DNA of 64,000 nt. It comes from Sorghum bicolor (lineage: Eukaryota > Streptophyta > Magnoliopsida > Poales > Poaceae). Position numbers and translations under genes: made by a program. This document shows, in pieces, positions 2,564 through 47,705 of the stretch. The stretch lies in contig NC_012877.2 in NCBI RefSeq assembly GCF_000003195.3, positions 19,618,294 to 19,682,293 on the forward strand, read 5' to 3'. Position 1 is the stretch's first letter; every line of letters starts with the position of its first letter. The notes below the pieces were generated by a model that worked only from the letters and a program-made list of their open reading frames with translations, did no database searches and was not told the DNA's origin.

Positions 2564-2680
2564 ACACTGTCAGGCTTCACAATAAAGGAAGACAAGACAA
2601 GTGATGGGTTATCCCTATCACTACTTGATAACTAGCAAACTCTGGATTCTCTTTTTGTTAAAACTCTTAGACAGACGCTT

Positions 2681-2698
2681 TCCCCGGCAACGGCGCCA
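2681..2698 (-). promoter_or_regulatory. Primer binding site, tRNA-Asp type
   Basis: On the minus strand it reads TGGCGCCGTTGCCGGGGA, the Asp-type primer site usual for Athila/Tat elements. It lies 8 nt past the LTR end, a slightly long gap. It primes minus-strand DNA synthesis. Confidence 0.85.
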
Positions 2699-2738
2699 GA
2701 AATGCTTGTTGACACTTCTTAACGCAACCACCGGATAT

Positions 2739-2760
2739 CGGCGACGGCGCCAGAAGTGCC
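2739..2760 (-). repeat. Second primer-site-like copy inside the LTR
   Basis: The 14-mer CGGCGACGGCGCCA (2739-2752) repeats the primer-site segment CGGCAACGGCGCCA (2685-2698) with one mismatch at a 54 bp spacing. The similarity continues into the next bases (GAAGTGCC versus GAAATGCT). It lies inside the LTR about 32 bp from its terminus. Confidence 0.6.
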
Positions 2761-18043: not shown

Positions 18044-21000
18044 TGTAACAGAACCGACCAAATTATAAGAGATTAAGCCTAATAGTGACCATTTGCATAG
18101 TCGAACCATCACGCTTAAGCCCATATAATCCCGGTAGTCCGTGAAATCTCAAAGGATTTCAAACCACACATCGCATACAGCCAAGATCGTAATAAGTTTA
18201 GCGGCCGCCATCCACAAGTACATCCAGATTACAACATTCATGAAACACATCGGAGTACTTAAGTTATTACAAACCAAGTTCTTCAAGTAGCGGAAGCTTC
18301 ATAGTTCGAAATTACAACACACACGATAAGTCTGATACAGTGCCATAGTTCGGTCATTCCCACAAAAGCAAAGGAAGAGACGGAGTGACCATCGCCGTTG
18401 GTCTAGTCATCACCCATAGCTGGGTACAGACAGAGGATGCAATAACCATAGTACATTTGACCATCTGCAAAACAACATGGGAATAGGACCCTGAGTACGA
18501 GAAGGTACTCAGCTAGACTTACCCGTCATAAACTTAAAATAAAGACTCATCAAGGATCATGAAGGCTATTTAGTGGGGTAGCTGACAACCATTTTGCAAA
18601 GACCGCAAGGTTTTATTACCCTAACCTACATAAATCTTTTCTTCTTTTAATCTGCTCAAGTTGAAAGTATCATTACCTATTATCTAGGTTTGCTCCTGTG
18701 CTATTACAAGCAAGTATGAGACTATGATAGTACCTCATCATAGCATTTCTTGAACCATTCATCATTATAACCCAAGTGTTCCATAGTCCTTACTACGAGG
18801 ACGAAGCTCATGTCAAGTGCTCACTATCCAGGAGCGATGGCGATTCGAATCGATTTCTAACCAGCTGGCGAATTTATTCCCCACACAAACCACACTCACT
18901 GATCAAGTGAGCTACAGGTCACCGTGTTGCACTATCCAGGACCAATTCGCGGGTTCGACAGGCACCGCCCGTACCCGAGGACTGTTCCGGCGACCGAGGT
19001 ATCCAAGGTATACCAAGGTTGCGCGTCGCGCCCTCGTCGTTCTCCTCAACCATCACCAATACAGCGCGTACATCGAGCCGATTCCCGGCCCGGATAGTGC
19101 TCAGGCTTCGCGGTCGGAACGACTTATCCTTCCAGCTAAGTGTGGGGCATGCGTTCAACATGACAAGAGGGCCGTCAACGATCGGTCCTTAATCGACACA
19201 GGCAGGGGCACTATGGTCAACCCACCATAAGACCCTGCCCGGTCTCCAAATTCATTCCACAATTGGTCATCCTTTTCCCAAGCAACCAATGCTTAATCAA
19301 GCAGGTATCCACCTATATCTCGTAGGTGACAGGAAATCACCCGACTTCTACCGGACTAAGCAAGCTAAGCATAGACTCCGCGCCTATCTACATAGGACAA
19401 GGTAGATAAACGAGTAGGAATAACAAGGAATACATATGCAGCAACGGTATCAGGCAACTCCTACCACTTAAATGCAGTAGTAGAACAAGTATAGTGCATC
19501 ACATAAGTTAGCGAGAATAGGGAGACTTAGAATGCTCCGGGGCTTGCCTTTCTCAAACGTGCTGGGTCGGTGATCCGGACACTCCTGCAGTTCCTCTCCG
19601 GGTTCCGGTGCTTCCGGAGGTTCTTGCTCCTGAGTCTCCTCTGGCTCCTCGGGTCCCACCTCGTTCTCCTGCGAGCCTGTATGATGCATGTGTGCTCATG
19701 AGTGGAGTGTGAGATGCCCGAATGGATGCTTGTATGAGAAGGTACCAAAGGACCATGTCATGATGCATGGATGATACACTTGGTCATGCTCATCACAAGG
19801 TATGCAACATCATCCAAGAACAGGCACTTGGATTAAACATCTATTGCATTCTCTTTTACAATTATTTTTCAAATGCAATCAGTAACCCACACGATGCTTC
19901 AAAGATACACCAAACCCAACTTATTCCATTCAACCTAGATATGCAACCATTCATAATTTTCTTTATTCATTTCTAGGCTCATTAAAATCACATGCAATTC
20001 TGTTCATCAATAAATTCCAGAAAAATTACAGGAGACTACTAGCTAATCATAAAGTCTACTGTAAATTTTTCATAATTTTTTTGGTTACTTATTTTGAGCC
20101 ACAAAAATCACAAGATTAATTGATAAGGTATGTAAAATCACTCTACTGTGATATAAGTGTCAAACAACAGATTTCATATTTTTACAATTTGTCTAACATC
20201 ATAAGAAACACCCACAAAATTTTCCAGATTTATTGCATGACCCATTTAATTATTAAAAATCATAAAGCACTGCCATGCAAGCATTTAAATTACCATAAAT
20301 TCATTTATTCATCAAATAATATGTACCCACATTTTCCCAGTGAGCAAACACACATGCAAAGCCAACAAATCAAGTTTCACATTTTTCTGAGCCATATTTT
20401 ATTTACTATGCATTTTCCAAGTTTAACAAAATCATGGATAAAATATATTCACACAGAAAAGTTACTCCAACATGACATGCAATTACATCAAACTGTAGAT
20501 CTGGAAATATAGAGCACACCAAAATTTATTTCATTCAATTTGGAGCTGTAGAACTCAAGATATAGATTTTACAAACTTTAAATCAATTTCTGGAAAACAC
20601 TTTTTCAAGAAAACCGACGAAAAAGGCTACGCACACCCAGATCTACACCCACCGGGGTACCCCTGCGACTGGCAGTGGGTCCCCGACCCCACCAGTCAGC
20701 GAGACCGAGAGGGAGCTCACCTCCGACGAGCGGATTTCGCTGGCGGTGAGGTCTCCGGCCACGGGGTGAGCACCAACGTGCTCCCCGCAGCAAGACGCAC
20801 CCAGCGGTACCCTTGGATCGACCAGAGGACGGCCGGAACACCTCCGGCGAGCATGCATGGCGGCACGGCGGCGCTGCTCGTCGTGGCCAGGCTGCTCCGG
20901 TGCGGTAGAGCGTGCGCAAACGCCTCTCCGAGCTACCTCACCTTCCTACCGACCTAGCGCAACAGAGAACGAGCGAAAAGAGGCAGGGAAACGCTAGATC

Positions 21001-21966
21001 CGTCGCGGCGGAGTACTCCGGCGAGCTCGGGGTAACTCCGGCGAGCGATTCATGGCGCTCGACGGACTCTCACCTCGGTAGAACGTTCGCACGAGCTTAC
21101 CCTAGCGACGGCGAGTGCCCTGGTGCTCTCGGCGTCGAGCTTGAGGCTCTGGTGCGGCCGGCGACGAGCGGCGGAGCTCTCTCCGGCAATGGCGCGCGGA
21201 GGAGCGGCTACTGCTGCGCGGTGCGAGCGAAGGAGGAAGGAGAAGGAGGGCGCGGGGGAGACAGGATGGAGGGAGTGGCCTGGGAGCCTGCGCCGGCGTC
21301 CCGACCAGGGGGGTTAGAGGCCGGCCGCGGCGCGTCCAACGCCGGCGTACGGCCACCACGTGGCCGGCGCCGGGTGGGGCAAGGCGGGCGCCGCGCGCGC
21401 GGGAGAGAGGGGAGGGGGAGCGGGCCGCGCTGCCCAGCTGGGCCAGAAGGGAGGCGGGTCGGCCCAGCAGCGCCTGCCCCCTTTCTCCTTTTTTTTTTGA
21501 AATTCTTTTCTCAAATTCTTTCTAAATTCATTTGGACCAATTTCAAATCATTTTCACCTCTTGCTCCCAAAAACAAAGTTGTTCCAAAACAAAAACTCTA
21601 CAACTTTGCTTTAACAAGCAAGACCAAATTCCAAACAGAATTTGAATTACAAGTTAAAACTCAGTTCTAGGTTTTAAATAAATTCTTTTTGGATATTTTT
21701 GTATAAATTCCATTTCTCAATTTCCATAGCTCCAAAAATTGCACAAAAATATTCTAAATTCTTCTTACACATAAAGCAACCTAATTTGAATATTTCACAA
21801 TTTTAGAAGCAAGCATCGTATTTTTAGCATATTTAAACTCATGAAGTGAAGCACATCAAATCATAATTTGAGAAGAGTGTCATGCTCATGATGCTTATGC
21901 TTGATGGGAATGCTTATGCATGACTTTGATGAGACTAAGTGCATGCTTAACACCTAGGGTGTTACA
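18044..21966 (-). repeat. 3' LTR of minus-strand Tekay-type element
   Basis: 3923 bp, running from TGTAACACCCTAGG (right) to GGTTCTGTTACA (left) on the minus strand. It contains a very GC-rich block (about 20640-21480) and an AT-rich remainder. The ORFs seen in it are by-products of GC content. The TATA element present in the plus-strand LTR at 30899 is altered here. Confidence 0.9.
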
Positions 21967-24900
21967 GCCCTCCCCCCCTTAGGGAAATCTCGTCCCGAGA
22001 TTTTTGGGGTTACTAACCATTTCTTATGAAATTTTGGATAAACTGTTTTTAAGTAATCCTCTGTTTCCCAAGTGGCATCCCTATCGTCATGATGACTCCA
22101 CACCACCTTGTATGTTCGAACAACTCTGTTTCGGGTTACTCGCTCCTTGGTATCCACAATCCCCACTGGCTGCTCTTTGTACTCTAGGTCTGCTTTTATC
22201 TTGATTCCTCGAGGTTCAATTCTTTGCTCCGGTACTTTCAGACATTTCCGCAGTTGAGACACATGGAAGACCGGAAAGATCGAGCTCATCTCTTCAGGTA
22301 ACTGAATCTTGTAGGCCACTGGGCCTTTCCTTTCTAGCACTTGGTATGGTCCCACATATCTGGGTGCAAGCTTGCTTCGAACTCGGAAACGTTGAATTTT
22401 CTTCATTGGCGTAACCTTGAGATACACATAGTCGCCTACTTTGAACTCAAGTTTCCTTCTCCTCTTGTCAGCATAACTCTTCTGTCGTGATTGCGCTGCT
22501 TGCATATGTTGCTGTATAATCTGCACCTTTTTCTCGGCATCATTCACAAAGTCGATACCATAGTATCTTCTTTCACCAGGTTCCACCCAGTTTAACGGAG
22601 TTCGACATCACCGCCCATACAAAGCTTCGAACGGGGCCATCTTGATGCTCTCTTGATAACTATTATTATATGAGAACTCAGCCAAAGGTAACCATGATTC
22701 CCACGATCCCTTGGATGATAGCACACAGGCCCTCAGCATATCTTCTAACACTTGGTTTAGCCTCTCTGTTTGGCCTGAAGTCTGGGGATGATACGCTGTG
22801 CTTCTTATCAGACTGGTCCCCAAACTCTTATGCATGCGCTCCCAGAAGTGAGCAGTGAACTGCGGTCCTCTATCCGATATGATGGTTTTGGGGATACCAT
22901 GCAACTTGACGATCTCAGCCATATATATATCAGCATACTCGGGAGGTCTGTATGTGTTCTTGACTGGAATGAAATGAGCCGACTTGGTTAATCGATCTAT
23001 GATTACCCAAATCGAGTCATTCCCCTTCCTGGTTGTCGGTAAGCCGGTGATAAAGTCCATACTGACCTCTTCCCATTTCCACTCCGGAACTGATAACGGT
23101 TGTAACAGACCTGCAGGTTTCATATGGATGGCCTTAACTCTGCAACATGTGTCACAACGGGCCACATAAGCGGCTATTTCTTTCTTCATCTTGGTCCACC
23201 AAAAGTGGGGCCTTAGATCTTGATACATTTTGCTGCTGCCAGGATGAATAGAAAGCTTAGAGAGATGGGCTTCATCCATGATGCGATTCTTCAACTCCCG
23301 ATCTTTCGGGACCACTAACCGCTGTTGAAACCACAGTACCCCCTTCTCATCAACCCGAAACTGAGTCTTTGGGTCATCTTTGATCTTCTCTTTGATGTGG
23401 AAAATACCCTTGTCTGTTTTCTGACCTTCAATGACTTGACTCTCGAGTGAACAACTGAGTTGTATATGACATAAGACCTCAGGATGCATAAGATTGAATC
23501 CATCTTCAAACAATGGTTGCACCACTTGATAGTGCGGTTTACGACTCAACGCATCTGCTACCACATTAGCCTTGCCTGGATGATAGTGAACCTCCAGATC
23601 ATAGTCCTTGATTAACTCTAACCACCGTCGTTGCCTCATATTCAGCTCGGACTGAGTGAAGATGTATTTCAAACTCTTGTGATCGGTGTAGATGTGACAC
23701 TTATTTCCTAGCAGATAATGTCTCCAAATCTTCAAGGCATGCACCACTGCTGCTAACTCGAGGTCGTGCGTTGGGTAATTGACTTCATGCTTTCTCAGCT
23801 GTCGGGAAGCATAAGCTATCACCCTGCCATCTTGCATCAACACACATCCCAGGCCACTCTTCGATGCGTCACAAAACACATCAAAAGGCTTCTCTATATT
23901 GGGTTGCGCCAGAACGGGGGCAGTGGTTAGCAACTTTCGCAAGGTGCGGAAGGCTAACTCACACCCTTCCGTCCAGACAAACTTATGATCCTTTTGTAGC
24001 AAACTTGTCATTGGCTTAGCAATCTTGGAGAAGTCAGGTATGAAGCGACGATAATACCCGGCCAGACCAAGAAAACTTCTAACTTCCGAGACAGAAGTTG
24101 GTGCCTTCCAGTCCATGACTTCCTGCACTTTTGATGGATCCACAGCAATTCCTTCTTCAGATAGAATGTGCCCTAGGAAAGGAACTTTCTTCAACCAGAA
24201 CTCACACTTGCTGAACTTGGCATATAACTGGTGCTCTCGTAATCGTGTCAGCACGATTCTCAGATGTTCGACGTGATCTTGCTCATTTTCTGAATACACC
24301 AGGATATCATCGATAAACACCACAACAAACTTATCCAATTCTGGCATAAAGACTGAATTCATCAGATACATAAAGTATGCAGGAGCATTTGTCAACCCAA
24401 AGGACATGACAAGATACTCATACAACCCATATCTGGTGGAAAAAGCAGTCTTCGGGATATCTTGCGGACGAATCTTGATTTGGTGATACCCAGATCTCAA
24501 ATCTATCTTAGAAAACACTCTGGCCTTGGATAACTGATCAAACAGGATATCAATCCTTGGCAGGGGATACTTATTCTTGATCGTCACTGCATAGAGTGGA
24601 CGATAGTCCACGCACATGCGCAACGACTGATCCTTCTTTTTCACAAACAACGCTGGACAACCCCATTCCGACGAGCTTGGCCGGATGAACCCTTTTTCTA
24701 GTAACTCCTTCAGTTGCTTCTTCAACTCTGCGAGTTCGTTTGGTGGCATCCGGTACGGCCTTCTAGATATTGGTGCTGTACCTGGTATCAACTCGATTGC
24801 AAACTCTACCTCCCTATCTGGGGGAAGTCCTGGTAACTCCTCGGGAAACACATCAGGGAACTCACATACTACGGGTATGTGTTCTAGGGGAACTACCTGT

Positions 24901-26453
24901 ACTGCACACGAAAGACTGGCGAAGTCCAAACGCCGGGGTAACTTGACCTGAAACACACCCTTCCCTTGCGGCTCTCTGAGCGAAAGGGTTCTATTCCCAA
25001 CATCTATAACCGTGCCCCAGTCAGTCATCTTGTTCATTCCAATGATGACATCCAAAACCAGTCCTGGCATGACCACAAGGTTTACACGAAACCTCCGGCC
25101 ACTGATATCCAAAGTAACTCCTGTTACCATTTTATTAGTCAACACATCGGCTCCGGCTGAGCTGATGCGATAGCCATAACCTAACTCAGTAACTGGCTGA
25201 TCATGCTTTTGTGCAAATGCTTGGCTCATGAATGAATGCGATGATCCAGAATCAAACAAAACAACTGCGAGATGTTGGTTGACAGGAAACATACCAGCTG
25301 TCACCAGTTCTCCTTCCGGGATCTCCTCAATCGAGGTATGGTGCACACGAGCTGGATAGGTTGGCTGCTGCCTCTTGGGGTAGGGACATTCCTTAGCAAA
25401 GTGCCCCATCTTGTGGCAGTTATAGCACAGACCCTTGGGCGCATTGTTGACGGCAGGTGCTGCAGCTTGAATTGCCTTTGGCTTGGCAGGAGCTATCGCC
25501 ACCTTGTACGGCTTCTGCTGGGTTGGATGCCCGGTGTTCCTTCTCTGCGGCGGTCGGAACCTAGCACCTGGGGCAGGAGGACGATACTGCTGTCGCCCTG
25601 TCACTGGTGCCCTGGACTGAGATGATCCTGCTTCAAAAGCCCTTTTACGTGACTTGGATGCACTGTAGTTGTTGTTATTGTTCTCTTGGGTCAGACAGTC
25701 ACTGATATAGGCATTGAAAGTAGCCCTGGCCCCTGTACCCATGGTCTTCAGCATCTTTGGATTCAAGCCTCTCTGGAAACTAGCAATCTTCTTAGCCTCC
25801 GTGTTCACAAACTCAGGGGCATAGCGAGCGAGATTGTTGAAAGCGTGTAGATACTCCTTCACAGACTTCGTCCCTTAGGACAGCCTCATGAACTCCCCAA
25901 CCTTCATTTCAACCACACCAGGAGGAATGTAATTTCCCCAGAAAGTGGTGGCGAAGCGGTTCCAGGTGATTGGTGTCCCCTCTGGGTAGGTGGTACGGTG
26001 ATGGGACCACCAAATCCTAGCAGGTCCTTGCAACTGATGTGCCGCATACTCAGCCTTGAGTTCTTCTGTCATTCGGAGAAGACGAAACTTCTGCTCCATG
26101 GTGTTGATCCACTCATCTGCTTCGAGCGGTTCCAAGGCCTCCTTAAAGATTGGTGGCTTGGTATCCATGAAGTCCTTGAACGAGCTGTACTGGTTGACCT
26201 CCCGGCCACCCTGATTATCCCCACGACGGGTGTTGTCAGCTATGTTGCGCAAAGCTTCTTCCATGTTGCGCTGCATCTGTTCCATGTTGCGTTGGCTCCC
26301 CAGAAACTGCGCGAAAAACACATCCGCAGTGTACGGGGGAGGCGGTGGTGGGGGCGGTGTTGGTGCTCTGTCCTCATTCCATTGAGCCCCACCTCCGGAT
26401 GTACCTGCTCCAAGGCCCGGGTTGCTGTTACCCCCGCCACGTGTTTGCACCAT
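21954..26453 (-). pseudogene. gag-pol: Gag-pol of minus Tekay-type chromovirus, two nonsense codons
   Basis: A single long frame from an ATG at 26453 (MVQTRGGG), which directly follows an acceptor-like TATGCAG. In order: a poly-Pro stretch and gag capsid; CCHC knuckle [14 protein letters not shown]; protease DSGSSHSF; reverse transcriptase with FIDD; RNase H (FCDAS, DLELAAV, YTDHKS); integrase with an HHCC zinc site and D, D, E in SMDF, SDRG and HPQTSGQTE; a GPY/F module; and a C-terminal chromodomain-like segment. TAA at 25875-25877 falls within gag and TGA at 22608-22610 falls after the integrase core, where plus copies read Arg (CGA). An extra C and A near the 3' end shift the last codons relative to the plus copies. 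It keeps the full gag that the plus copies lack. Confidence 0.93.
21967..21980 (-). promoter_or_regulatory. Polypurine tract of minus element
   Basis: Minus-strand AAGGGGGGGAGGGC directly before the 3' LTR. Confidence 0.8.
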
Positions 26454-26776: not shown

Positions 26777-27820
26777 CTACTCGCTATGGTCACTGTCCAT
26801 GCCGGAACCATCCTCATCTTCATCACCACTAGCAGCTGCTCCTATCTCGGGATCCGCGTCCATCTCGTCCTCAGAGTCTAGCTCAGCTACTCCAGGCAGG
26901 TGGTGAGGGTGGAGCTGGTTATGCAGCTGGTGGATCTCCTCATGCAAGTTCTCATTGTACTCCTCAGCATTAGCTAGCTGCTGCTCTAGCTCTAGCTGTC
27001 GGGCCCTCAAAGTGTCCTCCTCGTGCCAGGCTTCATTCCTCTGTCCAAGCACATGGACTAGCATGCGCTCGCAGTTCCTGTGAGCAGTAGTCACCCTGTC
27101 CTTCTGCCCCCGCACTGCAAGCAGGTCCTGACTCAGCTCACTGTTCTCCTGGACCGCCTGGTCTCTCTCTCTGGTCACACGGGCCAACTCTGCCTGTAGC
27201 CTCTCAACCTCAGAGTCAAACTCACGCTGCAACTGACGCTTCTCATCCTGGACGGTGAGAAGAGACCCGGACAAGCGACCCAAACAACGCTCCAGGCCTC
27301 CATAGGTCTTCATCAACGCGTACATGGCACTCATAGCTGCACTGTCACTGTGCTGGTCCTCATCCGCACTCCTCTCTAGAGCATTCACCTCGGACTGATC
27401 CCACACCGAAGTGTAAGGGTCACCCCGGGGAAACACCCCAGCGAAGGCGTGGGCCAGCTCCTGTGGAAACCTCTCCATGAGGTCCCTCAAAACTGCGAAA
27501 GTTGCCCTGCTGGCACCGTGGAAAGGCGTGACACCTCGGGACTCGTACAACCAACCGACCCAAGCAGGGTCTCCTCCACTGGTAGGGACAACTGCCTCGA
27601 TCCCCACCAGGGTCTCGTCACCAAGCGGCTCCTTATCCCAATAGTAGCGAGGCTCCCTTCCTTCGGGATACCCCATCGAACTGAGCACCCTCCAAAGCAA
27701 AGTGGGCATCCCAAACTCCTCCAGGAACTTGCTCTTATGTCGCGAGCTCCTAGCTGCCAACGGATGGCGAGGGGCCCGCCCACCAGTGGACTTGCGAGCG
27801 GTGAGCCTAGTGCGTGCCAT
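26777..27820 (-). CDS. Histone H3 tail-mimic coiled-coil protein of Tekay-type element
   Basis: Intact ORF of 347 residues between primer region and gag. I start it at the ATG, 27820; an upstream in-frame TTG would add only three residues. After Met the protein reads ARTRLTARKSTGGRAPR, with 16 of the first 21 positions identical to the histone H3 tail. It keeps R2, K9, S10, T11 and R17, while K4 and K14 are Arg. Residues 31-180 are a mixed region with no histone fold or other family that I recognise. Residues about 188-305 are a long heptad-rich coiled coil. Residues 312-347 are strongly acidic (SEDEMDADPE, then GDEDEDGSG). The acidic tail recalls histone-binding proteins. A role in chromatin targeting or in evading silencing is inference; no enzyme motif is visible. 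Confidence 0.85.
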   Translation of the reverse strand: MARTRLTARKSTGGRAPRHPLAARSSRHKSKFLEEFGMPTLLWRVLSSMGYPEGREPRYYWDKEPLGDETLVGIEAVVPTSGGDPAWVGWLYESRGVTPFHGASRATFAVLRDLMERFPQELAHAFAGVFPRGDPYTSVWDQSEVNALERSADEDQHSDSAAMSAMYALMKTYGGLERCLGRLSGSLLTVQDEKRQLQREFDSEVERLQAELARVTRERDQAVQENSELSQDLLAVRGQKDRVTTAHRNCERMLVHVLGQRNEAWHEEDTLRARQLELEQQLANAEEYNENLHEEIHQLHNQLHPHHLPGVAELDSEDEMDADPEIGAAASGDEDEDGSGMDSDHSE

Positions 27821-28440
27821 CTGCTGCAAATGGAATACCGTGGGTAAGAGTGAGGATTACCTTTAATTATTTTATTTAGAATTGGGACAGATTAAATTAA
27901 GGGGGAAAGTAAGCAATGATATGGAATGAACATGATGTATGCACGAACTTACGATCTCACAAACCTAGAAACAAGGGTTAACACTAAGCGGTATATGCGG
28001 TGGCATACAACGTTCTCTCATAACGTAACTAGCGTTCTAAGCGGGAACGTGGTTAGGGTACCTGCAGAAAACTCATTTCAGCCCACCCACAGTATGATCG
28101 TGCAGAACAAAATTTAAAACTATGCACTTCACATACACAGACACCCGTCCATGCATGTGACGTGTCACTACCCACATCATCGCCCTAATGACGGCATCGC
28201 CTCTCAGGACGGAATTCCCAGCATGCGGTACTGTTCCCGAGACACACCAAACATGTGTGCATGACACAGTACCTAGCAACACTCCCCTAGACCGGCAGTG
28301 TATCCGATCATGCTCTCACAGCTCCCACTTACCGTGGCGTAGAGGAAAAAGGGATCCATACATTACCACTCAAATGAATGGCACTCATACTATTGCACGC
28401 CGTATGAGCGACGAAAATAGAAATATGATGCATTCACCCC
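27821..28440 (-). other. Leader of minus element, truncated
   Basis: Non-coding leader upstream of the mimic ORF. It holds a donor-like GTAAGT on the minus strand (28332-28327) and an acceptor-like TTTGCAG just before the ORF. It stops at 28440, where the plus LTR begins. The first about 206 bp of leader, with the primer site, are missing compared with the plus copy (32361-32566). Confidence 0.7.
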
Positions 28441-31400
28441 TGTAACACCCTAGGTGTTAAGCATGCACTTAGCCTTGGCAAAGCAATGCATAAGCATCCT
28501 CATCAATCATAAGCATCATGAGCATGTCATTCTTTTCAAGTATGATTTTATGTGCATCATTTCATGTGTTTTAAATATGTTAAAAATATGATGCTTGCTT
28601 CTAAAATTGTGAAATATTCAAATTAGGTTGCTTTATGTGTAAGAAGAATTTAGAATATTTTTGTGCAATTTTTGGAGCTATGGAATTTGAGAAATAGAAT
28701 TTATACAAATTTTCCCAAAATGAATTTATTTAAAACCTAGAACTGAGTTTTAACTTGTAATTCAAATTTTGTTTGGAATTTGGTCTTGCTTGTCAAAGCA
28801 AAGTTGTAGAGTTTTTAATTTGGAACAACTTTGTTTTTGGGAGCAAGAGGAGAAAATGATTTTAAATTGGTCCAAATGAATTTAGAAAGAATTTGAGAAA
28901 AGAAATTCAAAAAAAAAGGGAAAGGGGGCAGGCGCTGCTGGGCCGACCCGCCTCCCTTCTGGCCCAGCTGGACAGCGCGGCCCGCTCCCCCTCCCCTCTC
29001 TCCCGCGCGCGCGGCGCCCGCCTCGCTCCACCCGGCGCCGGCCACGTGGCAGCCGTACGCCGGCGTTGGACGCGCCGCGGCCGGCCTCCAACCCCCCTGG
29101 TCGGGACGCCGGCGCAGGCTCCCAGGCCACTCCCTCCATTCTGTCTCCCCCGCGCCCTCCTTCTCCTTCCTCCTCCGCTCGCACCACGCAGCAGCAGCCG
29201 CTCCTCCGCGCGCCATTGCCGGAGAGAGCTCCGCCGCTCGTCGCCGGCCACACCAGAGCCTCAAGCTCGACGCCGAGAGCACCAGGGCACTCGCCGTCGC
29301 TAGGGTAAGCTCGTGCGAACGTTCCACCGAGGTGAGAGTCCGTCGAGCGCCGTGAATCGCTCGCCGGAGTCACCCCGAGCTCGCCGGAGTACTCCGCCGC
29401 GACGGATCTAGCGTTTCCCTGCCTCTTTTCGCTCGTTCTCTATTGCGCTAGGTCGGTAGGAAGGTGAGGAAGCTCGGAGAGGCGTTTGCGCACGCTCTAC
29501 CGCGCCGGAGCAGCCTGGCCACGGCGAGCAGCGCCGCCGTGCCGCCATGCATGCTCGCCGGAGGTGTTCCGGCCGTCCTCTGGTCGATCCAAGGGTACCG
29601 CTGGGTGCGTCTTGCTGCGGGGAGCACGTTGGTGCTCACCCCGTGGCCGGAGACCTCACCGCCGGCGAGATCCGCTCGTCGGAGGTGAGCTCCCTCTCGG
29701 TCTCGCTGACTGGTGGGGTCGGGGACCCACTGTCAGTCGCAGGGGTACCCCGGTGGGTGTAGATCTGGGTGTGCGTAGCCTTTTTCGTCGGTTTTCTTGA
29801 AAAAGTGTTTTCCACAAATTGATTTAAAGTTTGTAAAATCTATATCTTGAGTTCTACAGCTCCAAATTGAATGAAATAAATTTTGGTGTGCTCTATATTT
29901 CCAGATCTACAGTTTGATGTAATTGCATGTCATGTTGGAGTAACTTTTCTGTGTGAATATATTTTATCCATGATTTTGTTAAACTTGGAAAATGCATAGT
30001 AAATAAAATATGGCTCAGAAAAATGTGAAACTTGATTTGTTGGCTTTGCATGTGTGTTTGCTCACTGGGAAAAATTGGGTACATATTATTTGGTGTATAA
30101 ATGAATTTATGGTAATTTAAATGCTTGCATGGCAGTACTTTATGATTTTTAATAATTAAATGGGTCATGCAATAAATCTGGAAAATTTTGTGGGTGTTTC
30201 TTATGATATTATGCAAATTGTAAAAATATGAAATCTGTTGTTTAACACTTGTATCCCAGTAGAGTGATTTTACTTGCCTTATTAATTAATCTTGTGATTT
30301 TTGTGGCTCAAAATAAGCATCCAAAAATCATGAAAAATTTGCAGTAGACTTTATGCTTAGCTAGTAGTCTCCTGTAATTTTTGTGGAATTTATTGATGAA
30401 CAGAATTGCATTTGATTTTTAATGGGCTTAGAAATGAATAAAGAAAATTATGAATGGTTGTGTATGTAGGTTGAATGAAATAAGTTGGGTTTGGTGTATC
30501 TTTGAAGCATCATGGGGGTTGCTGGTTGCATTTGAAAAATATCTGTAGAAGAGAATGCAACAGATGCTTAATTTAGTTATTGTTCCCGGATGATGTTGAC
30601 TACCTTGTAATAAGCGTGACCCAGTGCATCACCTATGCATCATAACATGACTCCTTTGACACTCTCTCTTACAAGCATCCACTCGGGCATCTCACACTCC
30701 ACTCATGAGCATATATGCATCATACAGGCTCGCAGGAGAACGAAGTGGGACCCGAGGAACCCGAGGAGATAGAGGAGCAGGAACCTCCGGAAGCACAGGA
30801 ACCCGGAGAGGAATTTCAAGAGTGTCCGGATCACCGACCCAGCACGTTTGAGAAAGGCAAGCCCCGGAGCATTCTAAGTCTCCCTATTCTCGCTAACTTA
30901 TATAAAGTGCTATACTTGTTCTACTGTATTGCATATTAAGTGATAGGAGTTGCCTGATACCGTTGCTGCATGAGTACTCCTTGTTATTCCTACTCATTCA
31001 ACTACCTTGTCCTATGTAGATAGGCACGGAGTCTATGCTTAGCTTGCTTAGTTCGGTAGAAGTCGGGTGATTCCCTGTCACCTGCGAGATATAGGTGGAT
31101 ACCTGCTTGATTAAGCATTGGTTGCTCGGGGAAAAGAATAACCAAGTGTGGAATGAATTTGGAGACCGGGCGGGGTCTTATGGTGGGTTGACCATGGTGC
31201 CCCTGCCTGTGTCGATTAAGGACCGATCGTTGACGGCCCTCTTGTCATGTTGAACGCATGCCCCACACTTAGCTGGAAGGATAAGTCGTTCCGACCGCGA
31301 AGCCTGAACACTATCCGGGCCGGGAATCGAGCCGCCATGCGCTGTATTGGTGATGGTTGAGGAGAACGACGAGGGCGCGGCGCGCAACCTTGGTATACCC

Positions 31401-32360
31401 TGGATACCTCGGTCGCCGGAACGGTCCTCGGGTACTGGCGGTGCCTGCCGAACCCGCGAATTGGTCCTGGATAGTGTAATACGGTGATCTGTAGCTCACT
31501 TGATCAGTGAGTGTGGTTTGTGTGGGGAATACCTCGCCAGCTGGTTAGAAATCGATTCGAATCGCCATCGCTCCTGGATAGTGAGCACTTGACATGAGCT
31601 TCGTCCTCGTAGTAAGGACTATGAAACACTTGGGTTATAATGATGAATGGTTTAGGAAATGCTTTATGAGGTACTATCATAGTCTCATACTTGCTTGAAA
31701 TAGCACAGGAGCAAACCTAGATAATAGGTAATGATACTTTCAACTTGAGCAAATTAAAAGAAGAAAAGATTTAGGTAGGTTAGGGTAATAAAACCTTGCG
31801 GTCTTTGCAAAATGGTTGTCAGCTACCCCACCAAATAGCCTTCATGATCCTTGATGAGTCTTTATTTTAAGTTTATGACGGGTAAGTCTAGCTGAGTACC
31901 TTCTCGTACTCAGGGTTCTATTCCCATGTTGTTTTGCAGATGGTCAAATGTACTATGGTTATTGCATCCTCTGTCTGTACCCAGCTATGGGTGATGACTA
32001 GACCAAGGGCGATGGTCACTCCGTCTCTTCCTTTGCTTTTGTGGGAATGACCAAACTATGGCACTGTATCAGACTTATCGTGTGTGTTGTAATTTCGAAC
32101 TATGAAGCTTCCGCTACTTGAAGAACTTGGTTTGTAATAACTTAAGTACTCCGATGTGTTTCATGAATGTTGTAATTTGGATGTACTTATGGATGACGGC
32201 CGCTAAACTTATTACGATCTTGGTTGTATGCGATATGTGGTTTGAAATCCTTCGAGATTTCACGGACTACCGGGATTATATGGGCTTAAGCGTGATGGTT
32301 CGACTATGCAAATGGTCACTATTAGGCTTAATCTCTTATAATTTGGTCGGTTCTGTTACA
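28441..32360 (+). repeat. Plus-strand Tekay-type LTR 1, full length
   Basis: 3920 bp from an intact TGTAACACCCTAGG terminus to GGTTCTGTTACA. It holds a 738 bp GC-rich block (28986-29723) that LTRs 2 and 3 lack. A TATA box TATATAAA lies at 30899-30906. It joins the truncated minus leader exactly at its 5' terminus, which suggests a true insertion end. Confidence 0.92.
30899..30906 (+). promoter_or_regulatory. LTR TATA box
   Basis: TATATAAA within CTAACTTATATAAAGTGC. The same sequence is in LTRs 2 and 3. The minus LTRs read TATGTGA at this place. Confidence 0.5.
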
Positions 32361-32362
32361 GC

Positions 32363-32377
32363 TGGCATCGGAGCAAG
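32363..32377 (+). promoter_or_regulatory. Primer binding site, initiator-Met-like
   Basis: TGGCATCGGAGCAAG two bases after the LTR. It resembles the TGGTATCAGAGC initiator tRNA-Met site with two transitions. It recurs at 41627-41641. Confidence 0.8.
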
Positions 32378-33185
32378 GTTTAGCGAGTTACTGTTCATAA
32401 GTACGTTTTAAACAAAAATCTAAACCGGTTTAGTAAAAGATTTAATTAATTAATTAATAATGATCAAGGTGTTAAACTAAGTTTTGGGAAAATTATCTAG
32501 TGTGCCATGGTCATATCCTTTATGCCCAGTTAAGGACTCTAAGGTGGCTAGCTAAGTACTGACTTGGGGGTTAATGCATCATATTTTTATTTCGTCGCTC
32601 ATACGGCGTGCAATAGTATGAGTGCCATTCATTTGAGTGGTAATGTATGGATCAATTCTTCCTCTACGCCATGGTAAGTGGGAGTTGTGAGCGCATGATC
32701 GGATACACTGCCGGTCTAGGGAAGTGTTGTCAGGTGCTGTGTCATGCACACATGTTGGTGTGTCTTGGGAACAGTACCGCATGCTGGGAATTCCGTCCTG
32801 AGAGACGATGCCGTCATTAGGGCGATGATGTGGGTAGTGACACGTCACATGCATGGACGGGTGTCTGTGTATGTGAAGTGTATAGTTTTAAATTTTGTTC
32901 TGCACGATCATACTGTGGGTGGGCTGAAATGAGTTTTCTGCAGGTACCCTAACCACGTTCTCGCTTAGAACGCTAGTTACGTTATGAGCGAACGTTGTAT
33001 GCCACCGCGTATACCGCTTAGTGTTAACCTTTGTTTTCTAAGTTTGTGAGATCGTAAGTTCGTACATGCATCATGTGCATTTCATATCATTGCTTACTTT
33101 CCCCCTTAATTTAATCTGTCCCAATTTTAAATGAAATAAATAAAGGTAATCCTCGCTCTTACCCACGGTATTCCATTTGCAGCAG
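32378..33185 (+). other. Leader of plus element 1 with splice-like signals
   Basis: About 0.8 kb, non-coding. A strong donor-like ATG|GTAAGT puts an intron start at 32674. An acceptor-like CCATTTGCAG ends at 33182, three bases before the mimic ORF ATG. A TTAA repeat lies at about 32440-32456. Splicing would place the mimic ATG near the front of an mRNA. Confidence 0.55.
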
Positions 33186-34229
33186 ATGGCACGCACTAGG
33201 CTCACCGCTCGCAAGTCCACTGGTGGGCGGGCCCCTCGCCGTCCGTTGGCAGCTAGGAGCTCGCGACATAAGAGCAAGTTCCTAGAGGAGTTTGGGATGC
33301 CCACTTTGCTTTGGAGGGTGCTCAGTTCGATGGGGTATCCTGAAGGAAGGGAGCCTCGCTACTATTGGGATAAGGAGCCGCTTGGTGACGAGACCCTGGT
33401 GGGGATCGAGGCAGTTGTCCCTACCAGTGGAGGAGACCCTGCTTGGGGCGGTTGGGTGTACGAGTCCCGAGGTGTCACGCCTTTCCACGGTGCCAGCAGG
33501 GCAGCTTTCGCAGTTTCGAGGGACCTCATGGAGAGGTTTCCACAGGAGCTGGCCCACGCCTTCGCTGGGGTGTTTCCCCGGGGTGACCCTTACACTTCGG
33601 TGTGGGATCAGTCCGAGGTGAATGCTCTAGAGAGGAGTGCGGATGAGGACCCGCACAGTGACAGTGCAGCTATGAGTGCCATGTACGCGTTGATGAAGAC
33701 CTATGGAGGCCTGGAGCGTTGTTTGGGTCGCTTGTCCGGGTCTCTTCTCACCGTCCAGGATGAGAAGCGTCAGTTGCAGCGTGAGTTTGACTCTGAGGTT
33801 GAGAGGCTACAGGCAGAGTTGGCTCGTGTGACCAGAGAGAGAGACCAGGCAGTCCAGAAGAACAGTGAGCTGAGTCAGGACCTGCTTGCAGTGCGAGAGC
33901 AGAAGGACAGGGTGACTACTGCTCACAGGAACTGCGAGCGCATGCTAGTCCATGTGCTTGGACAGAGGAATGAAGCCTGGCACGAGGAGGACACTTTGAG
34001 GGCCCGACAGCTAGAGCTAGAGCAGCAGCTAGCTAATGCTGAGGAGTACAATGAAAACTTGCATGAGGAGATCCACCAGCTGCATAACCAGCTCCACCCT
34101 CACCACCTGCCTAGAGCAGCGGAGCTAGACTCTGAGGACGAGATGGACGTGGATCCCGAGATAGGAGCAGCTGCTAGTGGTGATGAAGATGAGGATGGCT
34201 CCGGCATGGACAGTGACCATAGCGAGTAG
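33186..34229 (+). CDS. Histone H3 tail-mimic protein, plus copy 1 (intact)
   Basis: 347 residues, no stop or frameshift, same architecture as the copy at 26777-27820: H3-like tail, central region, coiled coil, acidic tail. The tail differs by one residue (PRRPLAA instead of PRHPLAA), so it still keeps the ARKSTGG segment and K9. Other changes are few, for example GGWVYES for VGWLYES. It lies between primer site and gag. It remains open although the downstream gag-pol is broken by a deletion and stops. Confidence 0.85.
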   Translation: MARTRLTARKSTGGRAPRRPLAARSSRHKSKFLEEFGMPTLLWRVLSSMGYPEGREPRYYWDKEPLGDETLVGIEAVVPTSGGDPAWGGWVYESRGVTPFHGASRAAFAVSRDLMERFPQELAHAFAGVFPRGDPYTSVWDQSEVNALERSADEDPHSDSAAMSAMYALMKTYGGLERCLGRLSGSLLTVQDEKRQLQREFDSEVERLQAELARVTRERDQAVQKNSELSQDLLAVREQKDRVTTAHRNCERMLVHVLGQRNEAWHEEDTLRARQLELEQQLANAEEYNENLHEEIHQLHNQLHPHHLPRAAELDSEDEMDVDPEIGAAASGDEDEDGSGMDSDHSE

Positions 34230-34553
34230 ATGCTAGGGCTCTAGAGCTAGTCTTTCCTCTTTTGTGATGTATGTTGCATGGCATGTCATGTACTTTTGGA
34301 TCTGGGCTGTGTAAGACTTTATGAGTTGATGCTGAAAGTCCAGTGTATGTATGCTGGCAAGTTGGATGTACGCGAACCTTGTTGCGTGAATGTTAAGTAA
34401 TCTGTTAGTGATGTTGTGCGTGGATGACGAGTTGTTGTGCCTTTGTTTATTGTGTGAATTTATTCCCTCAGTAAATTCAGTATGGCACGATTTTACACAT
34501 TTTCTACCGGTTGATGGCAACTCCTAACGATTGCTTATCATTGGCGTATGCAG
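34230..34553 (+). other. Spacer between mimic ORF and gag, copy 1
   Basis: Non-coding, ending in GCGTATGCAG, an acceptor-like sequence directly before the gag ATG at 34554. Confidence 0.5.
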
Positions 34554-37500
34554 ATGGTGCAAACACGTGGCGGGGGTAACAGCAATCCGGGTCTTGGAGC
34601 AGGTACATCCGGAGGTGGGGCTCAACAGAATGAGGACAGAGCACCAACACCGCCCCCACCACCGCCTCCCCCGTACAGGGGCCAGGGCTACTTTCAATGC
34701 CTATATCAGTGACTGTCTGACCCAAGAGAACAATAACAACAACTACAGTGCATCCAAGTCACGTAAAAGGGCTTTTGAAGCAGGATCATCCCAGTCCAGG
34801 GCACCAGTGGCAGGGCGACAGCAGTATCGTCCTCCTGCCCCGGGTGCTAAGTTCCGACCACCGCAGAGAAGGAACACCGGGCATCCAACCCAGCAGAAGC
34901 CATACAAGGTGGTGATAGCTCCTGCCAAGCCAAAGGCAATTCAAGCCGCAGCACCTGCCACCAACAATGCGCCCAAGGGTCCGTGCTATAACTGCCACAA
35001 GATGGGGCACTTTGCTAAGGAATGTCCCTACCCCAAAAGGCAGCAGCCAACCTATCCAGCTCGTGTGCATCATTCCTCGATTGAGGAAATCCCGGAAGGA
35101 GAACCGGTAACAGCTGGTATGTTTTCTGTCAACCAACATCTTGCAGTTGTTTTGTTTGATTCTGGATCATCGCATTCATTCATGAGCCAAGCATTTGCAC
35201 AAAAGCATAATCAACCAGTTACAGATCTGGGCTATGGCTACCGCATCAGCTCAGCAGGGGCAGATGTGTTGACCAATAGAGTGGTCCGAGGGGCAACCCT
35301 GGATATAAGTGGCCGAGTTTTTCGGGTAAATCTAGTGGTCATGCCTGGGTTAGTTTTGGATGTTATCATGGGCATGAACTGGATGAGAGAATGGGATGCT
35401 GTCATAGATACTGGAAAGAGGATGTTATCTCTCAGAGAACCACAGGGCAGTAACTCTTTTCAAGTACCTCTGCCCCGTCGTCTTGACTTTGCTAGCATCT
35501 CCTGTGCTACGCACGTGGTCCCTTTACCACAGATCCCAGTAGTCTGTGAGTTCCCTGATGTGTTTCCCGAGGAGTTACCAGGACTTCCCCTAGATAGGGA
35601 GGTAGAGTTTGCAATCGAGTTGATACCAGGTACAGCACCAATATCTAGAAGGCCGTACCGGATGCCACCAAACGAACTCGCAGAGTTGAAGAAGCAACTG
35701 AAGGAGTTACTAGAAAAAGGGTTCATCCGGCCCAGCTCGTCGGAATGGGGTTGGCCAGCGTTGTTTGTGAAAAAGAAGGATCAGTCGTTGCGCATGTGCG
35801 TGGACTATCGTCCACTCAATGCAGTGACAATCAAAAATAAGTATCCCTTGCCAAGGATTGATATCCTGTTTGATCAGTTATCCAAGGCAAGAGTGTTTTC
35901 TAAGATAGATTTGAGATCTGGGTATCACCAAATCAAGATTCGTCCGCAAGATATCCCGAAGACTGCTTTTTCCACCAGGTATGGGTTGTACGAGTATCTT
36001 GTCATGTCCTTTGGGTTGACAAATGCTCCTGCATACTTTATGTATCTGATGAATTCAGTCTTTATGCCAGAATTGGATAAGTTTGTTGTAGTGTTTATCG
36101 ATGATATCCTGGTGTATTCAGAAAATGAGCAAGATCACGCCGAGCATCTGAGAATCGTGCTGACACGGTTACGAGAGCATCAGTTATATGCCAAGTTCAG
36201 CAAGTGTGAGTTCTGGTTAAAGAAAGTTCCTTTCCTAGGGCACATTCTGTCTGAAGAAGGAATTGTTGTGGATCCATCAAAAGTGCAGGAAGTCATGGAC
36301 TGGAAGGCACCAACTTCGGTCTCGGAAGTTAGAAGTTTTCTTGGTCTGGCCGGGTATTATCGTCGTTTTATACCTGACTTCTCCAAGATTGCTAAGCCAA
36401 TGACAAGTTTGCTACAAAAGGACCATAAGTTTGTCTGGGCGGAAGGGTGTGAGTTAGCCTTCCGCACCTTGCGAAAGTTGCTAACCACTGCTCCCGTTCT
36501 GGCACAACCTAATATAGAGAAGCCTTTTGATGTGTTTTGTGACGCATCGAAGAGTGGCCTGGGGTGTGTGTTGATGCAAGATGGCAGGGTGATAGCTTAT
36601 GCTTCCTGACAGTTGAGAAAGCATGAAGTCAACTATCCAACGCACGACCTTGAGTTAGCAGCCGTGGTACATGCTTTGAAGATCTAGAGACATTATCTGC
36701 TAGGAAATAAGTGTCACATTTACACCGATCACAAGAGTTTGAAGTACATCTTCACTCAGTCCGAGCTGAATATGAGGCAACGACGGTGGTTAGAGCTAAT
36801 CAAGGATTATGACCTGGAAGTTCACTATCATCCAGGCAAAGCTAATGTGGTCGCAGATGCTTTGAGTCGCAAACTACACTATCAAATGGTTCAACCGTTG
36901 TTTGAAGATGGGTTCAATCTTATGCATCCTGAGGTCTTATGTCATATACAACTCAGTTGTTCGCTCGAGAGTCAAGTCATTGAAGGTCAGAAAACAGACA
37001 AGGCTATTTTCCACATCAAAGAGAAGATCAAAGATGACCCAAAGACTCAGTTTCGGGTTGATGAGAAGGGGGTACTGTGGTTTCAACAGCGGTTAGTGGT
37101 CCCGAAAGATCGGGAATTGAAGAATCGCATCATGGATGAAGCTCATCTCTCTAAGCTTTCTATTCATCCTGGCAGTAGCAAAATGTATCAATATCTAAGG
37201 CCCCACTTTTGGTGGACCAAGATGAAGAAAGAAATAGCCGCTTACGTGGCCCGTTGTGACACGTGTTGCAGAGTTAAGGCCATCCATATGAAACCTGCAA
37301 GTCTGTTACAACCGTTATCAGTTCTGGAGTGGAAATGGGAAGAGGTCAGTATGGACTTTATCACCGGCTTACCGACAACCAGGAAGGGGAATGACTCGAT
37401 TTGGGTAATCATAGATCGATTAACCAAGTCGGCTCATTTCATTCCAGTCAAGAACACATACAGACCTCCCGAGTATGCTGATATATATATGGCTGAGATC

Positions 37501-38430
37501 GTCAAGTTGCATGGTATCCCCAAAACCATCATATCGGATAGAGGACCGCAGTTCACCGCTCACTTCTGGGAGCGCATGCATAAGAGTTTGGGGACCAGTC
37601 TGATAAGAAGCACGGCATACCATCCCCAGACTTCAGGCCAAACTGAAAGGCTAAATCAAGTGTTAGAAGATATGCTGAGGGCCTGTGTGTTATCATCCAA
37701 AGGATCGTGGGAATCGTGGTTACCTTTGGCTGAGTTCTCCTACAATAATAGTTATCAAGAGAGCATCAAGATGGCCCCGTTCGAAGCTTTGTATGGTCGA
37801 AGATGTAGAACTTCGTTAAACTGGGTGGAACCTGGGGAAAGAAGATACTATGGTATCGACTTTGTGAATGATGCCGAGAAAAAGGTGCAGATTATACAGC
37901 AACATATGCAAGCAGCGCAATCACGGCAGAAGAGTTATGCTGACAAGAGGAGAAGGCCGCTTGAGTTCAAAGTAGGCGACTATGTGTATCTCAAGGTTAC
38001 GCCAATGAAGAAAGTTCAACGTTTCCGAGTTCGAAGCAAGCTTGCACCCAAATATGTGGGACCATACCAAGTGCTAGAAAGGAAAGGCCCAGTGGCCTAC
38101 AAGGTTCAGTTACCTGAGGAGATGAGCTCGATCTTTCCGGTCTTCCATGTGTCGCAACTACGGAAATGTTTGAAGGTGCCGGAGCAAAGAATCGAACATC
38201 GAGGAATCAAGATAAAAGCGGACTTGGAATATAAAGAGCAGCCAGTGGGAATTGTGGATACCAAGGAGCGAGTAACCCGAAACAGAGTTGTTCGAACATA
38301 CAAGGTGGTTTGGAGTCATCATGACGATAGGGATGCCACTTGGGAAACAGAGGATTACTTAAAAACAGTTTATCCAAAATTTCACAAGAAATGGTTAGTA
38401 ACCCAAAATCTCGGGACGAGATTTCCCTAA
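34554..38430 (+). pseudogene. gag-pol: Gag-pol, plus copy 1: gag deletion and two stops
   Basis: From the gag ATG only about 40 codons of native gag remain. At 34673-34677 (GTACA) the poly-Pro region is fused to the end of the capsid, deleting 596 bp relative to the minus copy and shifting the frame. Downstream the pol frame has the CCHC knuckle, protease DSGSSHSF, reverse transcriptase with FIDD, RNase H, integrase and the chromodomain-type end. TGA 36607-36609 (Arg codon in the other copies) and TAG 36685-36687 (Trp in the minus copy) lie in RNase H. Loss of capsid means it could move only with helper Gag. Confidence 0.92.
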
Positions 38431-38442
38431 GGGGGGAAGGGC

Positions 38443-41400: not shown

Positions 41401-41624
41401 ATAACTTAAGTACTCCGATGTGTTTCATGAATGTTGTAATTTGGATGTACTTATGGATGACGGCCGCTAAACTTATTACGATCTTGGTTGTATGCGATAT
41501 GTGGTTTGAAATCCTTCGAGATTTCACGGACTACCGGGATTATATGGGCTTAAGCGTGATGGTTCGACTATGCAAATGGTCACTATTAGGCTTAATCTCT
41601 TATAATTTGGTCGGTTCTGTTACT
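38443..41624 (+). repeat. Plus-strand LTR 2 (middle), 738 bp deletion
   Basis: 3182 bp. The terminal TG is TA (TATAACACC) and the end is GTTACT instead of GTTACA. The deletion joins at 38987/38988 and removes the GC-rich block. It is preceded by the polypurine tract AAGGGGGGAAGGGC and followed by a primer site, so it serves as 3' LTR for one unit and 5' LTR for the next. Confidence 0.92.
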
Positions 41625-41626
41625 GC

Positions 41627-42448
41627 TGGCATCGGAGCAAGGTTTAGCGAGTTACTGTTCATAAGTACGTTTTAAACAAAAATCTAAACCGGTTTAGTAA
41701 AAGATTTAATTAATTAATTAATAATGATCAAGGTGTTAAACTAAGTTTTCAGAAAATTATCTAGTGTGCCATGGTCATATCCTTTATGCCCAGTTAAGGA
41801 CTCTAAGGTGGCTAGCTAAGTACTGACTTGGGGGTAATGCATCATATTTTTATTTCGTCGCTCATACGGCGTGCAATAGTATGAGTGCCATTCATTTGAG
41901 TGGTAATGTATGGATCAATTCTTCCTCTACGCCATGGTAAGTGGGAGTTGTGAGCGCATGATCGGATACACTGCTGGTCTAGGGAAGTGTTGTCAGGTGC
42001 TGTGTCATGCACACATGTTGGTGTGTCTTGGGAACAGTACCGCATGCTGGGAATTCCGTCCTGAGAGACGATGCCGTCATTAGGGCGATGATGTGGGTAG
42101 TGACACGTCACATGCATGGACGGGTGTCTGTGTATGTGAAGTGTATAGTTTTAAATTTTGTTCTGCACGATCATACTGTGGGTGGGCTGAAATGAGTTTT
42201 CTGCAGGTACCCTAACCACGTTCTCGCTTAGAACGCTAGTTACGTTATGAGCGAACGTTGTATGCCACCGCGTATACCGCTTAGTGTTAACCTTTGTTTT
42301 CTAAGTTTGTGAGATCGTAAGTTCGTACATGCATCATGTGCATTTCATATCATTGCTTACTTTCCCCCTTAATTTAATCTGTCCCAATTTTAAATGAAAT
42401 AAATAAAGGTAATCCTCGCTCTTACCCACGGTATTCCATTTGCAGCAG
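41627..42448 (+). other. Primer site and leader of plus unit 2
   Basis: Primer site TGGCATCGGAGCAAG at 41627-41641, then a leader matching 32378-33185, with the same ATG|GTAAGT donor and TTTGCAG acceptor motifs. Confidence 0.75.
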
Positions 42449-43492: not shown

Positions 43493-43816
43493 ATGCTAGG
43501 GCTCTAGAGCTAGTCTTTCCTCTTTTGTGATGTATGTTGCATGGCATGTCATGTACTTTTGGATCTGGGCTGTGTAAGACTTTATGAGTTGATGCTGAAA
43601 GTCCAGTGTATGTATGCTGGCAAGTTGGATGTACGCGAACCTTGTTGCGTGAATGTTAAGTAATCTGTTAGTGATGTTGTGCGTGGATGACGAGTTGTTG
43701 TGCCTTTGTTTATTGTGTGAATTTATTCCCTCAATAAATTCAGTATGGCACGATTTTACACATTTTCTACCGGTTGATGGCAACTCCTAACGATTGCTTA
43801 TCATTGGCGTATGCAG

Positions 43817-47693: not shown

Positions 47694-47705
47694 GGGGGGA
47701 AGGGC

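What the first reader, a model, noticed from the sequence alone, without database searches (positions are those of the whole stretch)
26777..27820. Retrotransposon ORF whose ATG opens into a histone H3 N-terminal tail mimic
After the initiator Met the protein reads ARTRLTARKSTGGRAPR. It matches the H3 tail at 16 of 21 positions, including R2, T3, T6-G13, A15-R17 and L20-A21. K9 with its ARKS context is kept, while K4 and K14 are Arg. The rest is not a histone: it has a central region, a coiled coil (about 188-305) and an acidic tail (312-347). Known H3-tail mimics elsewhere bind or saturate H3 readers and writers. Here the mimic could recruit or decoy H3K9 machinery, or steer particles to heterochromatin. 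The similarity is direct; the function is inference, and I cannot say whether it has been described.
Basis: partly seen in the sequence, partly recalled or inferred. Interest (0 to 1): 0.93.

Follow-up and report, generated by a model that had tools for sequence, protein, structure and literature searches.

The report
Jumping gene wearing a histone tail
A family of grass jumping genes makes an extra protein whose first two dozen residues copy the control tail of histone H3 and have been kept across related elements, which suggests that the element uses a forged histone tail to engage the plant's own gene-silencing machinery.

Summary
Confirmed. The ORF at 27820-26780 (-) starts Met-ARTRLTARKSTGGRAPRHPLA, 16/21 identical to histone H3 1-21. 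It is ORF0 of a Tekay-like Ty3 chromovirus with about 3.9-kb LTRs; the window holds three ORF0 copies, the 709-Mb genome at least 117. The tail is no accident of this copy: 57 of 245 proteins examined (243 relatives, two window copies) carry it (10-19 matches of 21), and none of the other 188, which begin further in, was seen to reach that region without it. Among six subfamilies the tail is 77% identical, the next domain 59%. K9 is kept in 56/57 and K4 in 53/57; K14, K18, K23 and K27 are almost always gone: methylation sites kept, acetylation sites erased. The middle domain is a dsRBD fold (two models), followed by a long coil and an acidic end; a shorter form joins tail to coil directly. Prior art: H3 similarity of grass chromovirus extra ORFs was, as I recall, noted in 2011 (paper not held); the dsRBD likeness was published in 2024. 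New here: the free N-terminal tail, its lysine pattern, its conservation and the joint architecture. It most likely engages host H3-tail readers/writers as decoy or tether; no binding or expression evidence exists.

The parts
26777..27820 (-). ORF0 (347 aa plus stop), extra ORF upstream of gag, same strand as gag-pol
   Evidence: 117 scored copies in the genome
27740..27820 (-). Histone H3-like N-terminal tail (Met + positions equivalent to H3 1-26); closest match in H3 1-21
27449..27715 (-). dsRBD-fold domain (residues about 36-124), alpha-beta-beta-beta-alpha
   Evidence: domain alone (from the 33186 copy)
26912..27340 (-). Long helix / predicted coiled coil (residues 161-303)
   Evidence: pLDDT 89-98 over most of it
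26780..26887 (-). Acidic C-terminal tail (residues 312-347)
   Evidence: sequence
27821..27832 (-). CATTTGCAGCAG directly before the ORF0 ATG: 3' splice-site-like context (inference)
   Evidence: same in 3 window copies and in L001-L020; residue before Met is Q in 36 of 36 relatives with upstream residues
25875..26480 (-). gag 5' part (Retrotrans_gag); likely ATG at 26453, also directly after ATGCAG; the gag-pol reading frame is interrupted after it
22608..25862 (-). pol: zinc knuckle, protease, RT, RNase H, integrase
21954..22586 (-). Integrase C-terminal part with SH3_Tf2-1 and a weak Chromo match (about 22020-22151), Tekay-like (type II) motifs by eye
18044..21966 (-). LTR at the 3' end of the minus-strand element
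50410..54302 (-). LTR taken as the 5' LTR of the minus-strand element (lacks about 30 bp at its inner end); separated from the internal part by a plus-strand array (inference from self-comparison)
   Evidence: 98.7% to 18074-21966; K2P 0.0122
33186..34229 (+). Second ORF0 copy, open, same tail except R for H at H3 position 18
42449..43099 (+). Third ORF0 copy, same tail as the second, frame broken
28440..50417 (+). Plus-strand tandem array LTR-internal-LTR-internal-partial LTR of the same family

Best explanation
ORF0 is an accessory protein of a grass Tekay-like retrotransposon, probably nuclear. It carries a histone H3 N-terminal tail, most simply taken from a host H3 gene, at its own N-terminus. 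Removal of Met would expose the same Ala1-Arg2-Thr3 end that H3 presents (inferred). A dsRBD-fold domain follows, then a long coiled coil that would display several tails together (inferred), then an acidic end. The tail keeps the methylation sites (K9 in 56/57, K4 in 53/57) and has lost the acetylation sites, so it imitates an H3 tail that can be methylated but hardly acetylated. Most likely it acts by binding, and being modified by, host proteins that read or write the H3 N-terminus and K9. I lean to an anti-silencing decoy that draws H3K9 writers/readers, and perhaps Dicer/DRB partners of the dsRBD-like domain, away from the element, over a tether that brings particles to heterochromatin. 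That it is an H3-tail mimic kept by selection I hold at about 0.8; that the decoy mode is the main one, about 0.35; the figure below is for the statement as a whole.
For: Identity 16/21 here and up to 19/21 in other subfamilies; PDB best hits are H3 tails. 57 of 245 proteins carry the tail (10-19 of 21 matches) and none of the other 188 was found to reach the region without it. Mean pairwise identity over 15 pairs of six subfamily representatives: tail 242/315 (77%), linker 121/220 (55%), dsRBD 717/1215 (59%). K9 56/57, S10 55/57, G13 56/57, P16 56/57, L20 57/57, A1 53/57, K4 53/57; K14 in 1/57, K18 0/57; K23 and K27 0/57. A short ORF0 without the dsRBD keeps the tail (46 of the 57). pN/pS in 50 unique copies: H3 1-13 0.03, tail without position 18 0.09, dsRBD 0.11, whole 0.13. 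dsRBD fold in two models; among the listed matches are plant silencing proteins DRB7.2, DCL4, DCL3 and HYL1.
Against: No expression, modification, binding or localisation data. The whole tail shows pN/pS 0.41, above the rest, mostly from an R/H polymorphism at H3 position 18. Copies were picked by protein score, which lowers pN/pS; the six representatives were picked because they show the tail. 188 of 245 retrieved proteins begin downstream of the tail (fragments or internal gene-call starts), so an internal start at M38 is not excluded. P0107 has N at position 9, P0011 has R3/R4/H8, and R2 and R8 are changed (mostly to C or H) in 16 and 12 of 57. Many short-form entries are 105-129 aa, perhaps decayed copies. 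The dsRBD lacks the recalled RNA-binding KKxAK lysines. A basic tail could also serve only as NLS or nucleic-acid binder.
Confidence: 0.4

Rival explanations
1. Tether rather than decoy: the tail, methylated at K9, is bound by host heterochromatin readers and brings ORF0 and the particle or integration complex to heterochromatin, a safe insertion site.
For: K9, S10 and G13 are among the most constant positions of the tail; chromodomains of other elements are described as targeting heterochromatin, and the partner of plant type II chromodomains is unknown (passages, PMC6317226; PMC3350952).
Against: Retrosat2 and its homologs are described as dispersed rather than concentrated in specific regions (abstract, PMC3485330). 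No link of ORF0 to the particle is known to me.
Confidence: 0.25
2. The tail is a ligand of the element's own type II chromodomain at the integrase C-terminus, coupling ORF0 to integrase.
For: The same element encodes a Chromo-like domain with Tekay motifs by eye, and the partner of type II chromodomains has not been found (passages).
Against: Type II chromodomains lack cage aromatics for methyl-lysine (passages); the Pfam Chromo match is below its cut-off; related dicot elements lack an ORF0 like this one (passages).
Confidence: 0.1
3. The H3 likeness is an inherited remnant used only as a basic nuclear-localisation or nucleic-acid-binding segment; reader/writer mimicry plays no part.
For: K14, K18 and K23 are mostly replaced by R or H; Poaceae 5' extra ORFs are predicted nuclear (section read, PMC11728184).
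Against: Non-basic residues A1, T6, A7, S10, G13, P16, L20, A21 (53-57 of 57) are at least as constant as R2, R8 and R17 (41, 45, 34 of 57), which charge alone would not require.
Confidence: 0.2
4. Chance resemblance.
For: None found.
Against: Random maximum 9/21 in 200,000 draws against 16-19/21 seen; retained across subfamilies.
Confidence: 0.01

Closest known systems
Grass Tekay-type chromoviruses with ORF0 (RIRE3, RIRE8, Retrosat2, sorghum Sb7)
   Same: Ty3/gypsy pol, LTRs above 3 kb, extra ORF upstream of gag on the same strand (PMC3485330 passages). Sb7 or a close relative may be this very family (inference).
   Different: PMC3485330 proposed hydrolase/acyltransferase-like functions for ORF0 and does not use the word histone; here ORF0 is H3 tail + dsRBD fold + long coil.
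5' additional ORF proteins of Tekay elements in maize and sorghum Sb7 (PMC11728184, 2024)
   Same: Same position; Foldseek likeness to a DRBM protein; suggested RNA-silencing role (passages and section 9).
   Different: No mention of histone (0 occurrences); no tail, short form or segment-wise selection in what I read.
Extra ORFs of chromoviruses with partial similarity to histone H3 gene (Steinbauerova et al. 2011, Genetica; abstract recalled, paper not held)
   Same: By recall, Poaceae 5' extra ORFs with H3 similarity explained by capture of a host gene.
   Different: As far as recalled, not described as a conserved free N-terminal tail mimic with a lysine pattern; I could not read it.
Histone H3-tail mimics of other proteins (viral proteins, G9a self-methylation, ligase 1; recalled)
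   Same: ARKS/ARTK-type motif imitating H3 K4 or K9.
   Different: By recall those imitate a few residues; here about 21-26 residues starting at the native N-terminus, encoded by a plant retrotransposon.
Anti-silencing proteins of Arabidopsis VANDAL transposons (a passage in PMC11728184 and reference titles seen)
   Same: Transposon-encoded accessory protein aimed at host silencing (proposed here).
   Different: DNA transposon, sequence-specific, no histone mimicry known to me.

Membership tests
Tekay-type chromovirus with ORF0 | Ty3/gypsy pol order with RT, RNase H, integrase | tested here: met
Tekay-type chromovirus with ORF0 | Chromodomain after integrase with Tekay motifs | tested here: inconclusive
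   Pfam Chromo 20.3 bits, below cut-off 25.1; TWE motif and RVTRNR read by eye against motifs in PMC3350952
Tekay-type chromovirus with ORF0 | LTRs longer than 3 kb and ORF0 upstream of gag, same strand | tested here: met
Tekay-type chromovirus with ORF0 | RT phylogeny within the Tekay clade | not tested
   no tree was built
Histone H3 | Histone fold after the tail | tested here: not met
   no Pfam histone match at E up to 0.1; model shows a dsRBD fold and a long helix
Histone H3-tail mimic | H3-like sequence at the protein's own N-terminus after Met-Ala | tested here: met
Histone H3-tail mimic | Kept across divergent relatives | tested here: met
   57 of 245 proteins carry it, none of the other 188 was found to reach the region without it; 77% v 59% identity among six representatives
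Histone H3-tail mimic | Bound or modified by H3 readers/writers | not testable with these tools
   needs biochemistry
Double-stranded RNA-binding domain (dsRBD) | alpha-beta-beta-beta-alpha fold matching solved dsRBDs | tested here: met
Double-stranded RNA-binding domain (dsRBD) | Sequence-profile match | tested here: inconclusive
   no dsRBD family for the domain itself (0 families) nor among the 25 of 35 Pfam families shown for 28 members at E up to 1
Double-stranded RNA-binding domain (dsRBD) | KKxAK lysines that bind RNA (motif recalled) | tested here: not met
   read by eye in the alignment: the helix starts TPxEGASRAAF or similar

The most novel reading that the evidence does not exclude
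A retrotransposon has turned a captured host H3 tail into a multivalent, methylatable but non-acetylatable decoy, joined to a protein-binding dsRBD, to disable both arms of plant silencing at once: H3K9 methylation and small-RNA processing.
Probability: 0.25. Interest if true: 0.93.

Novelty: new variant of a known kind. Interest (0 to 1): 0.72.

Why it matters
If the tail works, it is the longest and most exact H3-tail mimic known to me outside histones, encoded by a high-copy plant element. It would give a candidate function for ORF0, for which the 2012 Retrosat2 paper saw no obvious one, a natural probe of which H3 positions the silencing machinery reads, and a directly testable case of a transposon imitating the histone whose modification silences it.

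Tried and rejected
Chance resemblance. Searches of viral contigs and plasmids found no relative at their sensitivity. Pfam and PDB sequence profiles did not find the middle domain; only fold comparison did. Own-genome searches with relatives P0156, P0033, P0009 and P0011 returned matches at 51-62% identity that look like the window's family by place and identity; no second subfamily was evident among the scored matches (150, 150, 126 and 123, of 2479 to 3259 candidates). One hit, L071, is a copy with an internal deletion. So codon tests between subfamilies could not be done. An H3-gene comparison to test capture at DNA level did not complete. Nothing on an H3 mimic in a plant retrotransposon showed in the listings of ten paper searches; the library lacks most subscription papers, among them the 2011 Genetica paper.

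Full report
What is there. The ORF at 26777-27820 (-) is real and 347 codons long. It lies just upstream of gag on the same strand, in a Ty3/gypsy element with protease, RT, RNase H, integrase and a weak chromodomain match. The LTRs are about 3.9 kb and begin TGTAACACCC. The two LTRs taken as the element's own (18074-21966 and 50410-54302) differ at 47 of 3891 sites, K2P 0.0122, about 0.5 million years at the recalled rate 1.3e-8. By self-comparison a plus-strand tandem array of the same family stands between its 5' LTR and its internal part, and holds two more ORF0 copies, one open and one broken. The gag-pol frame of the minus element is interrupted. The window's genome has 709 Mb in 846 contigs; size and ten large contigs fit sorghum (inference). 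It holds 117 scored ORF0 copies at 97-100% identity, 105 of 117 without internal stops (a lower bound, best-scoring copies only).

The tail. After Met the protein reads ARTRLTARKSTGGRAPRHPLA, 16 of 21 identical to H3 1-21. Against PDB sequences the best hits are H3 tails, E 5.5e-4, although the query is a 347-residue protein (60 of 132 hits shown). Random 21-mers of the same composition reached at most 9 of 21 in 200,000 draws.

Relatives. Three searches of 5.8 billion proteins gave 243 relatives (the last two list 120 of 286 and 120 of 212). With the two open window copies, 57 of 245 carry the tail at 8/21 or more (in fact 10-19). The other 188 begin further in, being fragments or internal gene-call starts; none was found to reach the tail region without a tail, the furthest (P0004) beginning at residue 21. 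The closest to H3 are P0194 and P0238 (19/21), P0184 and P0185 (18/21). Forms with and without the middle domain both have it: 11 long, 46 short; many short entries are only 105-129 aa. Position by position: A1 53/57, R2 41, T3 48, K4 53, T6 53, A7 54, R8 45, K9 56, S10 55, G13 56, P16 56, L20 57, A21 55; but K14 1/57 (R in 55), K18 0/57 (H in 49), K23 0/57 (R in 46), K27 0/57. The methylation sites are kept and the acetylation sites lost. In the window's subfamily K4 is also lost, leaving K9 as the only lysine among the first 26 positions.

Conservation. Among six subfamily representatives (15 pairs) tail identity is 242/315 (77%), linker 121/220 (55%), dsRBD 717/1215 (59%); 2 of 75 blocks of 21 columns downstream of the linker reach the tail's level. 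Representatives were chosen because they show the tail, which favours it. In the window's genome, of 70 loci (overlapping between searches) 67 gave an ORF0 by motif scan, 60 without indel, 50 unique; pN/pS is 0.03 for H3 1-13, 0.41 for the whole tail, 0.09 without position 18 (an R/H polymorphism), 0.11 for the dsRBD, 0.13 overall. The linker, at 0.03, is as low as the best part of the tail. The loci came from protein-score lists, so these ratios are biased low. An earlier motif scan of the first 50 loci found the tail in 49 (the missing one was not pursued).

Start context. CAG stands directly before the ATG of ORF0 (3 window copies and L001-L020) and of gag (3 window copies), and Q precedes Met in 36 of 36 relatives with upstream residues. 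These look like 3' splice sites placed at the start codons; untested.

How it may work. Shown: an H3-like N-terminus, kept across subfamilies; predicted dsRBD fold and long coil. Inferred: removal of Met to expose Ala1, oligomerisation, nuclear action, binding by H3 N-terminus and K9 readers or writers. I favour the decoy (0.35) over the tether (0.25), a basic nuclear segment (0.2) and a chromodomain ligand (0.1).

Prior work. PMC3485330 (abstract, passages and section 14) describes ORF0 of Retrosat2, RIRE3 and RIRE8 as fast-evolving, grass-specific and without obvious function, and proposes hydrolase-like activity; 'histone' does not occur. PMC11728184 (passages and section 9) reports DRBM likeness for the maize and sorghum Tekay 5' ORFs and suggests RNA-silencing modulation; 'histone' does not occur. 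PMC7264820, PMC6317226, PMC9289625 and PMC8616336 were searched by term; none of the passages shown mentions H3 in ORF0. From memory, the abstract of Steinbauerova et al. 2011 says that part of the chromovirus extra ORFs, in Poaceae only, resemble the histone H3 gene; it is not held. The bare similarity is therefore probably known. The free-tail mimicry, the lysine pattern, the conservation, the short form and the joint architecture I did not find in ten paper searches.

Noticed in passing
28440-50417: Tandem LTR-internal-LTR-internal-partial LTR array (plus strand), 99.4% self-similar at an offset of about 9.26 kb, lying between the apparent 5' LTR and the internal part of the minus-strand element.
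   Followed up: partly
27821-27832 and the bases just 5' of the gag ATG at 26453: Both start codons directly follow a 3' splice-site-like ...TGCAG(CAG)/ATGCAG; may allow ORF0 or gag to be made from differently spliced RNAs.
   Followed up: partly
H3 position 18 of ORF0 in G000 copies: R/H polymorphism (R 26, H 23, Y 1 of 50 unique copies) in an otherwise nearly frozen tail.
   Followed up: no
L071:1001-1522: Copy with an internal deletion in dsRBD and coil that keeps tail, coil end and acidic end in frame (173 aa); its translation is identical to database protein P0214.
   Followed up: partly
P0026-P0041 and similar: Short ORF0 class (about 194 aa when full): tail joined directly to the coil, no dsRBD; not evident as a family of its own among the 150 scored matches in this genome.
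   Followed up: partly
P0042 (Miscanthus floridulus): Annotated plant protein joining a retrotransposon integrase end (SH3_Tf2-1) to an ORF0 coil end; perhaps a gene model across nested elements.
   Followed up: no
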